DNA of 64,000 nucleotides, taken from NCBI GenBank assembly GCA_937873495.1, contig CALMXZ010000009.1:62001-126000 (forward strand), written 5' to 3'. The notes below the pieces were generated by a model. The model did not search any database and had not been told where the DNA came from. It saw only the letters and a program-made list of their open reading frames with translations. A program made the translations under genes and the position numbers. The stretch is from an uncultured Trueperaceae bacterium. Lineage in GTDB: Bacteria > Deinococcota > Deinococci > Deinococcales > Trueperaceae. Below, one piece after another: positions 47,220-51,007 of this stretch. Every line of letters begins with the position of its first letter. The first letter of the stretch is position 1.

Positions 47220-47906
47220 TTACGAGGCGAGATGGATGCCCAAGGCCGTTGCGGACTCTCTGAGCACTGTTGCAACTGCGGCCTTGGCATCTTCAACGTT
47301 TCTACGCTTGACTGCGTTCAGTATGTCCGCGTGTTGCTCGACAGTTCTGGAGCTCATGGAAGTCGCGTATACCTGCTTACGCAACGGTTCAAGGATGCCT
47401 TGCGCCAGCTGCAGGAGCAGATCGTTATGGGTAGCCCGTGCTAGTGACATGTGGAACTTGACGTCCGCTTCCTCGAGGTGACGAGCGTCTCGTATCGCCG
47501 CGGCGTGTCGCATCTCATCGAGGATCGTTGTTATGGCGTCTAGCTCGGACGAGGAGGCCCTTAGGCACGCCAACTCGACGATGGCGGCGTCGAGGTACGA
47601 GCGCACCTCGAGTAACTCACGTAGGTCTCTATCGCCAAGCATGACCGCCAGGGCGGCCTGGCGACCGAGAGCCCCCTCCAGCCTCTCCGAAATGAAGGTG
47701 CCACGCCCCTTGACCATGCGGACCAGGCCCAGGGCCGAGAGAGACTGAAGGGCTTCACGCAGCGAAGCGATGCTCACGCCGAGGCTGACGGCGAGTTCTC
47801 GCTGAGGAGGCAGCTGGTCACCCCGGCCGAACTCTCCACGCGAGACGGCGTCGATTATGCGATTAGCGATCTCCTCAGGCAGACTTTTCTGAGATATCTC
47901 TTCCAT
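47220..47906 (-). CDS. GntR/FadR-type regulator (FCD domain)
   Basis: A 228-aa DNA-binding regulator: winged helix at residues ~7-75 (LPPQRELAVSLGVSIASLREALQSLSALGLV) and an FCD ligand domain with metal-type residues (His in VKFHMSLARATHN, His in EQHADILNAV). It probably controls the island downstream, reading the same direction with an 84-nt gap. It would bind a metabolite of the imported substrate. No operator palindrome was certain. Confidence 0.92.
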   Translation of the reverse strand: MEEISQKSLPEEIANRIIDAVSRGEFGRGDQLPPQRELAVSLGVSIASLREALQSLSALGLVRMVKGRGTFISERLEGALGRQAALAVMLGDRDLRELLEVRSYLDAAIVELACLRASSSELDAITTILDEMRHAAAIRDARHLEEADVKFHMSLARATHNDLLLQLAQGILEPLRKQVYATSMSSRTVEQHADILNAVKRRNVEDAKAAVATVLRESATALGIHLAS

Positions 47907-48156
47907 CCATACACCTGTTCCTGATGAGTGGAACTTCGAGGACTAGATGGCTCAGCGGCAGCCATCGATGATGTTTCTTGAGTGTGCAGGTTAGCAGGTG
48001 TTCAGAACGCAGTCAATAGACCATCGCGGCTTGGACATCCCGGGGCTGCAGAGTGCTGCTGCCACGGCTCGCTGCGTAGAGCTGGTCGTCGCGGGTAGCC
48101 CCGCCCATTAACTATCCCTGTTGGTACAGTCTCCCAACACGCCCTCGGGAGGCCTA
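47907..48156. other. Gap upstream of the regulator, no gene seen
   Basis: About 250 bp between the regulator start and the truncated cyclase copy. No ORF with coding character, no tRNA, no IS end I can recognise. It should hold the regulator promoter (minus) and perhaps a promoter for the truncated copy. Confidence 0.5.
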
Positions 48157-48270
48157 ATGAGACAGTCTCTAGCCGTACTCGCACTCGCCTTCTTGCCCTT
48201 CGCGGTGGCCCAAGCCCCGCGCACGATGTCGACGTCGTGCTGCTTGCTCCATTTGCGCGGCGTCTCGTAA
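48157..48270 (+). pseudogene. Truncated copy of the cyclase-family 5' end
   Basis: ATG 48157 opens MRQSLAVLALAFLPFAVAQ, nearly identical to the signal peptide of the intact gene at 50243. Homology starts with the ribosome site (GAGGCC) and ends abruptly at GCACGAT (48227); the rest reads into IS3 sequence and stops at TAA 48268. A broken duplicate, about 75 bp of it recognisable. Confidence 0.8.
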
Positions 48271-48379
48271 GCCACACCGAGATCGGCTGCTAGCGAACCG
48301 ATGCACTTACCGCTGGTCCGGAACAAACGAACGGCCTCCTCTTTGAACTCAGGCGGGTAAGGCGGGGCGCCTTCGGCAT
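48228..48379 (-). pseudogene. IS3-type OrfA transposase fragment, frameshifted
   Basis: The minus frame gives PYPPEFKEEAVRLFRTSGKCIG and LAADLGVAYETPRKWSKQ, the HTH of IS3/IS911 OrfA. ATG 48379 with AGAGGGAG starts MPKAPR in another frame, so one base has been lost. The 3' end is cut at the cyclase remnant. Confidence 0.8.
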
Positions 48380-48430
48380 GAACACTCCCTCTGCTCAGCA
48401 CTCTAGCCGAGCGAACAGGCGTCCACCGAA

Positions 48431-48595
48431 CGGGGGCATTCCCGGGACGCACGGCGCGGCATCATCGACTACATCGACTTCTACAACTCTGAGCGCTCCC
48501 ACACCAGCCTGCAAGGTCGAACCCCGATAGATGCTTACAGCGAGTCCCGGTCGACAGCGCCCATGCTGCCGGCACTACCCAGGCGCAGGCCATGA
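48431..48595 (+). pseudogene. IS3-type OrfB (integrase) C-terminal fragment
   Basis: The plus frame ending at TGA 48593-48595 contains IIDYIDFYNSERSHTSLQG and TPIDAY, the classic YIxFYNxxRxHSxLGxxTP end of the IS3 rve integrase domain. It points the opposite way to the OrfA piece, so the element is rearranged, not just decayed. Confidence 0.8.
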
Positions 48596-48667
48596 ACCTG
48601 TGCTAGAACCTAAAAACCAAGAGGAGATGTCCAACAGGCGGGGTCCACCGCTTGTATCTGTTGCCCG

Positions 48668-48755
48668 GTAGGGTCCACCCTACATTCTCCATCGCGAGCC
48701 TAGGTAAAAGGTATACATTCTACTGGGTGAGCCCGCGTAGAATGTCTACATTCTA
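48668..48755 (+). promoter_or_regulatory. Operator-like array: three TACATTCT at 33-bp spacing
   Basis: TACATTCT starts at 48681, 48714 and 48747, exactly 33 bp apart (about three helical turns). An inverted copy (AGAATGTC side) abuts the third, giving the dyad TAGAATGT-CT-ACATTCTA (48738-48755). A second dyad GTAGGGT-CC-ACCCTAC lies at 48668-48683. The third copy overlaps the -35 position of the ATPase promoter. Confidence 0.6.
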
Positions 48756-48768
48756 GCCATGCTTGATG

Positions 48769-48774
48769 TAGCAT
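48769..48774 (+). promoter_or_regulatory. -10 box TAGCAT of the ATPase gene (leaderless layout)
   Basis: TAGCAT is 6 nt before ATG 48781, with no ribosome site between. The repeat array ends 14 bp upstream. Confidence 0.5.
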
Positions 48775-48780
48775 GTCGTC

Positions 48781-50208
48781 ATGGCCGCACGGATCGGACA
48801 GACGGCGCAAGAACTCGCCCGACTCAACCCTTGGTGGAGACAGCGTAACTGGGCAGAGCTTGACCCGGACCTGCAAGAGGTGCGCCTAACGGCGCTTCAA
48901 TACCGGCCTGGCGTACTAGACGACCTTGAAGCAGGAAGCTTGTACATACTCAGAGGGCCGCGCCGGGTGGGCAAGACCGTGGCGATGCTTCAGTCTATTC
49001 AACGTCTACTTGAGCAAGGTGTCCCGCCGCATGCCATCGTCCGGTTCGCGGCCGACGGATGGACGGCCGCGGATGTGCGTACATTGATCACGAACGTTCC
49101 GTTGCCGCCTGTTCCCGACCAACAGCCACGCTACTGGTTCGTAGACGAGATCTCCTCGGTCCGAGGAGGCTGGGACCAGCAGATCAAGTGGTTGCGTGAC
49201 AATGATCCCGGTTTCCGTAGCGCGACCGTCGTTCTAACCGGTTCTAATGCAGCAGGCCTGACCGAGGCGGGAGGAACCCTTGCCGGGCGCAGAGGCAGCG
49301 GGTCGCGGCTGGACCGCACGCTCTTGCCGATGGGTTTCAGAACCTTCGTGGAAACGCTCGATCGGAACGACCGACCACCACTTCCAACCCTCCGGCTCTC
49401 CGAGTTGCATTCCACCCGTGCAGCGGAAGCGTACGCATCACTGATCCCTTGGCTCGACATTCTGGTGGCGGCCTGGGGTCAGTACTTGCAGTACGGGGGT
49501 TTTCCCAAGTCAGTGGCCGCCGCCCGGCGGGGCGAAGCCCTCCCTGAGGCCTTCGTCGAGGACATCTACAGCGTTGTATCGGGCGATGCGTTCAAGTCGA
49601 GCAGGTTGCCGAGCACGACTGAGATGGCGCTGCTGGAACGTCTTTGGAAGAGTATGGCGGCCCCAGCCAACCTGACCGCCATAGCTCAGGACGTTGGCGT
49701 AGCTCAAGAAAGCGTCTCTCGTCATGTGGAGTTCCTACGCGACGCGTACCTGCTTTGGGTGTGTCCGCTCAAGGCAAGCACTGGGTGGCTTCCCAAGGTA
49801 CGCAGTCAGCAGAAGCTGTATGCAGTCGATCCGCTGATAGCTCGGCTACCCCACCTCAAGAACCAGTACCGAGCTGATGTGGACCCAACGGTCCTCACCG
49901 AGATGCAGCTGGGACTTGCTGTCAGGCGTCGGATACTTGCGGAAGGCCTCGCTTCGCTTAGCGACGACTTCCTGTTCTTCGAGCGGACACCCAGTCGCAA
50001 GGAGATCGACTTCGTGGCAGAAGCGCTGGGCGGTGTAGCCCTGGAGGGCAAGTACATAAGTAGTGGCCGTTGGCGTTCCGAGGCGGCCACCGTCGAAGCG
50101 TCCGCTTGGAAGGGCATTCTAGCAACCCATAACGTGCTGGACATAGGCGACCAGTCGCGCGCCTGGGCCGTCCCGGCCGGTCTGCTGGCGTACCTTATCG
50201 ATACGTGA
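48781..50208 (+). CDS. AAA ATPase with DUF4143-like C-terminus
   Basis: A 475-aa ATPase. Walker A GPRRVGKT at residues 59-66, Walker B YWFVDEIS near 120, sensor VVLTGSN near 155. The C-terminal half resembles DUF4143: LQYGGFPKSV, a winged-helix part (LTAIAQDVGVAQESVSRHVEFL) and a nuclease-like E-x-K region (FFERTPSRKEIDFVAE, ALEGKYI). Such proteins are common mobile genes of unclear role. It sits in a rearranged stretch with IS remnants and lower GC, consistent with transfer. Confidence 0.85.
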   Translation: MAARIGQTAQELARLNPWWRQRNWAELDPDLQEVRLTALQYRPGVLDDLEAGSLYILRGPRRVGKTVAMLQSIQRLLEQGVPPHAIVRFAADGWTAADVRTLITNVPLPPVPDQQPRYWFVDEISSVRGGWDQQIKWLRDNDPGFRSATVVLTGSNAAGLTEAGGTLAGRRGSGSRLDRTLLPMGFRTFVETLDRNDRPPLPTLRLSELHSTRAAEAYASLIPWLDILVAAWGQYLQYGGFPKSVAAARRGEALPEAFVEDIYSVVSGDAFKSSRLPSTTEMALLERLWKSMAAPANLTAIAQDVGVAQESVSRHVEFLRDAYLLWVCPLKASTGWLPKVRSQQKLYAVDPLIARLPHLKNQYRADVDPTVLTEMQLGLAVRRRILAEGLASLSDDFLFFERTPSRKEIDFVAEALGGVALEGKYISSGRWRSEAATVEASAWKGILATHNVLDIGDQSRAWAVPAGLLAYLIDT

Positions 50209-50242
50209 GTTAGAGTCCGGCCAAGGTGTTCTTGGAGGCCCC

Positions 50243-51007
50243 ATGAGACAGTCGCTAGCCGTACTTGCCCTCGCCCTCTTGCCCTTCGCGGTGGCCCAAG
50301 CCCCGCGCACGATAACGTTCACCCGCGTCGTCGACCTCAGCCACGTGATCAGCACGGATATCCCGCTGTGGCCCGGCGACCCGCCCGTCGAGCTCGAGCC
50401 CGTGGCCGAGTTCGAGACGGACGGCTACTACCTGCGCCGCTTCTCGATCGGCGAGCACAGCGCCACACACATGAACGCACCGAACAGCTTCCACGAGGGC
50501 GGGGTGGGCATCGACGCGTACTCGCCGGAGTCGCTCGTGGTGCCGGCCGTCGTGATCGATGTGCGTGAGAAGGCGGCCGCGGACCCCGACCACGCGGTGA
50601 GCCTCGACGACATCGCGGCGTGGGAAGCGGTGCACGGTCCCGTGCCGGCGGGCTCGGTGGTCATCGCGTACACGGGCTGGCAGGAGAAGTGGACCGACGC
50701 TGCGGCGTTCTTCAACGAGGACGCGGATGGCGGCATGCACTTCCCGGGCTTCGCGGGGGAGACCACGGCGTTCCTACTGAGTGAGCGCGGCATCGCCGGC
50801 GTCGGCATAGACACGCACGGGGTAGACCCGGGCCAGGACGAGGAGTACGCCACGAACACCCAGGTGCTGGCCGGCAACGGCATCGTTCTTGAGAACCTCA
50901 CGAACCTCGACCAGCTGCCCGCTACGGGCGCCACACTCGTGATCGGCATCCTGCGGCTCTACGAGGGCTCCGGCACGCCGGTCTCCGTGTTGGCGTTCGT
51001 GCCCTGA
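50243..51007 (+). CDS. Exported cyclase-family hydrolase
   Basis: A 254-aa protein with a signal peptide (MRQSLAVLALALLPFAVAQ). The cyclase/kynurenine-formamidase-like fold shows DLSHVISTDIPLWPGDPP and the metal motif HSATHMNAP in place of HxGTHxDxP, so the second Gly and Asp differ. A later H in GIDTHGVDPG is kept. It may cleave an amide outside the cytoplasm. Ribosome site TTGGAGG. Its 5' end is duplicated at 48157. Confidence 0.87.
   Translation: MRQSLAVLALALLPFAVAQAPRTITFTRVVDLSHVISTDIPLWPGDPPVELEPVAEFETDGYYLRRFSIGEHSATHMNAPNSFHEGGVGIDAYSPESLVVPAVVIDVREKAAADPDHAVSLDDIAAWEAVHGPVPAGSVVIAYTGWQEKWTDAAAFFNEDADGGMHFPGFAGETTAFLLSERGIAGVGIDTHGVDPGQDEEYATNTQVLAGNGIVLENLTNLDQLPATGATLVIGILRLYEGSGTPVSVLAFVP

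What the first reader, a model, noticed from the sequence alone, without database searches (positions are those of the whole stretch)
48668..48774. Exact 33-bp array of TACATTCT upstream of an AAA/DUF4143 gene
TACATTCT starts at 48681, 48714 and 48747, with 33-bp steps (about three helical turns), so all copies face one side of the helix. The third copy also forms an 18-bp dyad (TAGAATGT-CT-ACATTCTA), and a second dyad GTAGGGT-CC-ACCCTAC is fused to the first copy. The array ends just before a leaderless-type -10. This is a dedicated, multi-site control region for a single mobile ATPase gene. The ATPase or a partner could bind it, or it could be an iteron-like site.
Basis: seen in the sequence. 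Interest (0 to 1): 0.65.

Follow-up and report, generated by a model that had tools for sequence, protein, structure and literature searches.

The report
Self-operator array before PDC-S01 ATPase gene
The three evenly spaced DNA copies are real and look like the docking sites of a gene switch, most likely recognised by the ATPase they precede, and similar gene-specific switches sit in front of most genes of this very common but uncharacterised candidate anti-virus gene family.

Summary
TACATTCT occurs three times, only at 48681/48714/48747, in exact 33-bp steps. Copies 2 and 3 are the right halves of two 18-bp imperfect palindromes (48705-48722, 48738-48755). Within 3 mismatches that 18-mer occurs nowhere else in the 3.4-Mb genome. 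The array is tied to the gene: the closest homologue (59% identity, a Micrococcales MAG, another phylum) has GGTATACATTCT twice at the same 33-bp step, with diverged spacers. A 25%-identical archaeal homologue (Haloferax plasmid) has a different word, TACAA, four times at exactly 33 bp.

A survey of 181 AAA_14/DUF4143 genes (PADLOC PDC-S01) generalises it. 63% have a significant inverted or direct repeat upstream, against 13% of 232 control genes from the same genomes (P=1e-26). No excess lies downstream. The sequence is private to each subfamily, direct repeats are helically phased, and inverted repeats often overlap the promoter and end at the start codon. Operator similarity tracks the wHTH and DUF4143 domains, not the AAA domain.

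Best reading: a cooperative autoregulatory operator, probably bound by the ATPase's own winged helix. Iteron, transposon-end and RNA readings are disfavoured. Binding and repression are untested. The upstream GGGTCC dyad is not conserved.

The parts
48705..48722 (+). Operator 2: imperfect palindrome TAAAAGGTATACATTCTA (right half TACATTCT at 48714)
   Evidence: 14/18 symmetric; GGTATACATTCTA identical to L002 unit 1; occurs only here and at operator 3 in the genome within 3 mismatches
48738..48755 (+). Operator 3: TAGAATGTCTACATTCTA (right half TACATTCT at 48747), over the putative -35
   Evidence: 16/18 symmetric; exactly 33 bp after operator 2
48681..48688 (+). Copy 1: TACATTCT half-site, 33 bp before copy 2; no left half-site
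   Evidence: full 18-bp unit only 2/18 symmetric
48769..48776 (+). TAGCATGT: degenerate inverted half-site (7/8 to TAGAATGT, 31 bp after it) overlapping the putative -10
   Evidence: sequence; 10/18 symmetric unit; inference
48745..48774 (+). Putative promoter: TCTACA, 18 bp, TAGCAT, 6 nt before ATG (leaderless type)
   Evidence: by eye, 8/12 to consensus; below the 9/12 threshold of the scan
48781..50208 (+). AAA_14/DUF4143 ATPase, 475 aa (PADLOC phage-defence candidate PDC-S01)
   Evidence: Pfam AAA_14 2.9e-14, DUF4143 3e-6; PDC-S01 3.1e-24; AlphaFold model pLDDT 89.1
49612..49773 (+). Winged helix-turn-helix (aa 278-331), proposed operator reader
   Evidence: model helices 278-290, 298-305, 309-321, strands 325-331 and 344-348, pLDDT about 90-95; weak ArsR-type hit at 282-325, far below its cut-off
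49810..50190 (+). DUF4143 domain (aa 344-470), with E408/D410 and E422-x-K424 as expected for a PD-(D/E)XK-like fold
   Evidence: fold assignment is from general knowledge of the motif, inferred
48668..48683 (.). GTAGGGTCCACCCTAC dyad; probably not part of the operator
   Evidence: no counterpart in L002; GGGTCCACC also at 48641-48649 next to the IS remnant
48108..48595 (.). IS3-type remnant: HTH_Tnp_1 ORF reversed (48108-48452, -) beside a C-terminal IS3-type transposase-like fragment (48458-48595, +)
   Evidence: HTH_Tnp_1; translation IIDYIDFYNSERSHTSLQGRTPIDAY, family assigned by eye
48148..48227 (+). Displaced copy of the start of the cyclase gene, with the ancestral upstream flank
   Evidence: 92.5% identical to 50234-50313; continuous with the cyclase in G003/G004
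50234..50313 (+). Start of the intact cyclase gene, second copy

Best explanation
The array is a gene-private, cooperative operator that controls the promoter of the AAA_14/DUF4143 (PDC-S01) ATPase directly downstream. Dimers bind 18-bp imperfect palindromes placed three helical turns (33 bp) apart, so that they sit on one face and can touch; the nearest site covers the -35 region and its degenerate partner the -10. This is one case of a family-wide tendency: most of these genes carry their own private operator next to the start codon. Shown: the sites, their spacing, their link to the gene and its conservation, the family-wide enrichment and the covariation. Inferred: protein binding, the identity of the protein, repression rather than activation, and the trigger.
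For: (1) Same motif and same 33-bp step upstream of the 59%-identical L002 gene: core 23/26 identical, spacers 9/40. (2) Unique in the own genome and in 111 genomes of the phylum. (3) 25%-identical archaeal homologue: TACAA x4 and GTTGT x3 in 33-bp steps. (4) 181 family genes against 232 controls from the same genomes: inverted repeats 48% vs 9%, either repeat type 63% vs 13%, P=1e-26; downstream of the same genes at control level. (5) Direct-repeat periods cluster at 21-24, 31-33, 39-42 and 46-47. (6) Inverted repeats overlap predicted promoters in 47 of 73, 27.5 expected, and often end at the ATG. (7) Arms covary in a 13-gene subclade: 157/208 paired, shuffles mean 123, maximum 138. (8) The four family genes of the own genome have four different sites. 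(9) Operator similarity tracks wHTH (0.14, bootstrap 0.04-0.25) and DUF4143 (0.26, 0.14-0.39) identity, not AAA (-0.09) or the linker region. (10) Confident wHTH in the model.
Against: No binding, footprint or expression data. The window promoter is weak by consensus. The DUF4143 domain tracks the operator at least as well as the wHTH, so which domain reads DNA is open; pairs are not independent and start codons were assigned by rule. 37% of family genes show no repeat above threshold. Copy 1 lacks a left half-site. Control regions were anchored on ORF starts and target regions on the Walker motif, a small difference in definition.
Confidence: 0.68

Rival explanations
1. The sites are operators, but for a separate host transcription factor, not for the ATPase.
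For: A GntR-family regulator lies nearby (47220-47906), and binding is not shown.
Against: The word follows the ATPase across phyla and occurs nowhere else in the genome, so a host regulator would have this single target. The four family genes of this genome carry four different sites. Similarity follows ATPase C-terminal domains.
Confidence: 0.15
2. Iteron-like or Cdc6/ORC-like initiator sites: the AAA+ wHTH protein loads at the repeats to start replication or transfer.
For: The fold is AAA+ plus winged helix; ORC2, Cdc6 and clamp loaders are among the best structure matches. Direct repeats at helical steps resemble iterons.
Against: Chromosomal single gene. In most family genes the site is a single inverted repeat over the promoter ending at the ATG rather than an iteron array. 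Only 2 of 72,556 plasmids hold a relative at E<1e-5, and no phage does.
Confidence: 0.05
3. Recognition site for movement: the array is an end, target or integration site of a one-gene mobile element.
For: Patchy distribution; recent insertion beside an IS remnant with an 80-bp duplication.
Against: Repeats are enriched upstream only, not downstream of the genes, and they are placed on promoters. The motif is absent from the flanks and from the rest of the genome. No transposase or recombinase domain in the protein.
Confidence: 0.07
4. RNA-level control: the repeats fold in a 5' leader.
For: Inverted repeats with covarying arms are also what an RNA hairpin would give.
Against: Here copies 1 and 2 lie upstream of the putative -35 and the promoter is leaderless-type, so they would not be transcribed. 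Direct repeats at helical steps and overlap with promoters point to DNA.
Confidence: 0.05

Closest known systems
PADLOC PDC-S01 (AAA_14/DUF4143, COG1373-type) single-gene phage-defence candidates
   Same: The window protein and its relatives match PDC-S01 profiles. PMC12988326 calls PDC-S01 the fourth most common defence across prokaryotes (29,494 in Bacteria, 9,986 in Archaea) and says validation is pending for most such candidates.
   Different: I found no description of operators in front of these genes in the open papers searched. The window protein is a divergent member: longer N-terminus, DUF4143 just below the Pfam cut-off.
Type Ia ParA autoregulation (plasmid F sopA/parA promoter)
   Same: An ATPase with its own winged helix binds repeated and inverted motifs cooperatively over its own promoter; half-sites 28 bp apart, three dimers (PMC8465637).
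   Different: ParA is a deviant-Walker P-loop ATPase with an N-terminal wHTH and a ParB partner. Here AAA_14, wHTH in the middle, DUF4143 at the C-terminus, no partner gene, and a site that changes with each subfamily.
Cdc6/ORC-type AAA+ winged-helix initiators and archaeal STAND-like ATPases (2qen, 2fna, 1w5t)
   Same: Fold class: AAA+ ATPase followed by a winged helix.
   Different: Low overall TM-scores (0.23-0.36), added DUF4143 domain, sites at the own promoter instead of origins.

Membership tests
PDC-S01 / AAA_14-DUF4143 ATPase | AAA_14 and DUF4143 domains in one protein | tested here: met
   AAA_14 53.6 bits (cut-off 27); DUF4143 27.5 bits (cut-off 28.1) by hmmscan and 30.2 bits in the genome search; PDC-S01 3.1e-24
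PDC-S01 / AAA_14-DUF4143 ATPase | Walker A and B intact | tested here: met
   G59, K65, D122, E123 invariant in 22 sequences
PDC-S01 / AAA_14-DUF4143 ATPase | Anti-phage activity | not testable with these tools
   Not tested here; candidate status only in the literature
Autoregulatory operator | Symmetric or repeated sites over or beside the gene's own promoter | tested here: met
   the promoter itself is predicted weakly
Autoregulatory operator | Site conserved with the gene across species | tested here: met
   L002 same word and step; L003 different word with period 32; L341 different word with 33
Autoregulatory operator | Gene product binds the site and changes transcription | not testable with these tools
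   Only indirect: covariation with wHTH/DUF4143
Iteron replicon | Repeats next to an initiator gene on an autonomous replicon | tested here: not met
   Chromosomal contig, single gene inserted beside a cyclase gene
Transposon ends | Matching repeats at both borders of the element | tested here: not met
   Motif absent downstream; family genes show no downstream excess

The most novel reading that the evidence does not exclude
Most or all PDC-S01 ATPases carry and read a private cis site at their own start codon, so that each copy in a genome is insulated from the others. Bound at this site the ATPase is held inactive and repressed, and release from it (by invading DNA or a change of nucleotide state) is the sensing step of the defence. 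Operator choice would then be a specificity code that diverges together with the wHTH and DUF4143 domains.
Probability: 0.15. Interest if true: 0.85.

Novelty: new variant of a known kind. Interest (0 to 1): 0.6.

Why it matters
PDC-S01 is reported as one of the commonest candidate defence genes of Bacteria and Archaea, and I found no account of its mechanism. A private operator-like site at nearly two thirds of the surveyed genes gives a concrete handle: a DNA sequence to bind, a promoter to assay and a predicted reader domain. It also suggests that many paralogues can coexist in one genome because each controls itself only.

Tried and rejected
Viral contigs hold no relative of the protein. 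The 113 viral contigs with the spaced pair are mostly AT-rich chance or internal tandem repeats, none beside a DUF4143 gene. Plasmid BLAST with the array or with the IS region gave nothing. Sequence search of solved structures gave only spurious hits. A direct-repeat test alone understated the pattern (28%); adding inverted repeats raised it to 63%. Two 'control' genes with strong repeats turned out to be DUF4143 genes and were removed. L024 (36% identity) has an inverted repeat upstream (CAAACATGGGGGGGTT / AACCCCCCCATGTTTG) rather than direct repeats. The GGGTCC dyad was considered as part of the operator and rejected as not conserved.

Full report
Observation. The unit is larger than the octamer. 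Copies 2 and 3 are right halves of 18-bp palindromes, TAAAAGGTATACATTCTA (48705-48722) and TAGAATGTCTACATTCTA (48738-48755); copy 1 has only the right half. In the whole 3.4-Mb genome the 18-mer with up to 3 mismatches occurs only at these two places, and the spaced pair is in no other of 111 genomes of the phylum.

The gene. The ATPase (48781-50208) has AAA_14, a confidently modelled winged helix (aa 278-331) and a DUF4143 domain, and matches the phage-defence candidate PDC-S01. The closest solved folds are archaeal STAND-like ATPases, ORC/Cdc6 and clamp loaders, all at low TM-score.

Conservation. The closest homologue found (L002, a Micrococcales MAG, 59% identity) has GGTATACATTCT twice, again 33 bp apart. 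In register, the 13-bp cores match at 23 of 26 positions while the spacers match at 9 of 40. The next one (L003, 42%) has a different word with period 32. The recognition-helix region is alike in the window and L002 (VSRHVE) and different in L003 (LKSRIG). A 25%-identical archaeal protein on a Haloferax plasmid has TACAA at 1341, 1374, 1407 and 1440 and GTTGT at 1358, 1391 and 1424 of L341, again exactly 33 bp. Word and architecture are thus separable: the architecture persists while the word changes with the protein.

Family survey. DUF4143 genes were collected from up to 390 genomes and 181 upstream regions were analysed. Direct repeats (z>2.5) occur in 50 of 181 against 12 of 232 control genes from the same genomes (P=2e-10). 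Inverted repeats occur in 87 of 181 against 21 of 232 (P=1.5e-19), and either type in 114 of 181 against 30 of 232 (P=1e-26). Downstream regions of the same genes are at control level (9.6%). Direct-repeat periods fall at 21-24, 31-33, 39-42 and 46-47, close to whole helical turns. Inverted repeats often end within a few bases of the start codon and overlap predicted promoters more than random placement allows (47 of 73 against 27.5). In one 13-gene subclade (CCTTG...CAAGGATG, the last ATG being the start) the two arms covary: 157 of 208 positions pair, against a shuffle mean of 123 and maximum of 138. A second subclade shares the word CTTGCAATCGGCCGA in 23-bp steps across several families of bacteria.

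Who reads it. Four family genes of the window's genome have four different sites (TACATTCT at 33 bp; GCTCGGAAAGTGGTAAC at 23 bp; TTGCACCGATTGT..ACAATCGGTGCAATG; CATCCTTGCAAAT..ATATGCAAGGATG), which argues against one shared host regulator. Over about 2,000 pairs at 38-70% identity, operator similarity depends on identity in the winged helix (0.14) and DUF4143 domain (0.26) and not on the AAA domain or linker region; a bootstrap over sequences keeps both above zero. This favours self-recognition and leaves open whether the winged helix, the DUF4143 domain or both touch DNA.

Mechanism proposed. Dimers on two or three phased palindromes cover the promoter and repress it, as type Ia ParA does (PMC8465637). 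Repression rather than activation is inferred from the overlap with the putative -35/-10 and with start codons across the family. Release by nucleotide state or foreign DNA is speculation.

Context. The gene is absent from the other five genomes of the genus. In two of them, G003 and G004, the cyclase gene has an uninterrupted upstream region, whereas here the cyclase start is duplicated (80 bp, 92.5%) on both sides of an IS3-type remnant and the ATPase. The insertion is therefore lineage-specific, but no border repeats or recombinase were found.

Limits. No wet data; start codons by rule; genome pairs not independent; the window promoter is weak by consensus. The literature check covers only open-licence papers, where DUF4143 appears in one paper.

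Noticed in passing
L034 upstream of 883; orthologues L219 and L220: A paralogue in the same genome has a 23-bp-period array (GCTCGGAAAGTGGTAAC, four or more copies) kept in two sibling species.
   Followed up: partly
48148-48227 and 50234-50313: 80-bp duplication (92.5%) of the cyclase gene start flanks the insert; too long for a usual target duplication. Siblings have an uninterrupted locus.
   Followed up: partly
48108-48595: Scrambled IS3-type remnant: HTH_Tnp_1 ORF on the minus strand abuts a C-terminal transposase-like fragment on the plus strand.
   Followed up: partly
L341 1341-1445: Archaeal (Haloferax plasmid) relative has TACAA x4 at 33-bp steps and lies next to a cas3-type gene.
   Followed up: partly
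L290, L277, L237, L239, L308, L261, L236 upstream regions: Subclade with a shared 23-bp-period word CTTGCAATCGGCCGA across several bacterial families.
   Followed up: partly
PMC4406477: A Thermus thermophilus AAA_14/DUF4143 gene (TT_P0211) is listed with value 6.6 in a table of expression changes with plasmid DNA, downstream of a CRISPR array; a possible hint of induction by foreign DNA.
   Followed up: no
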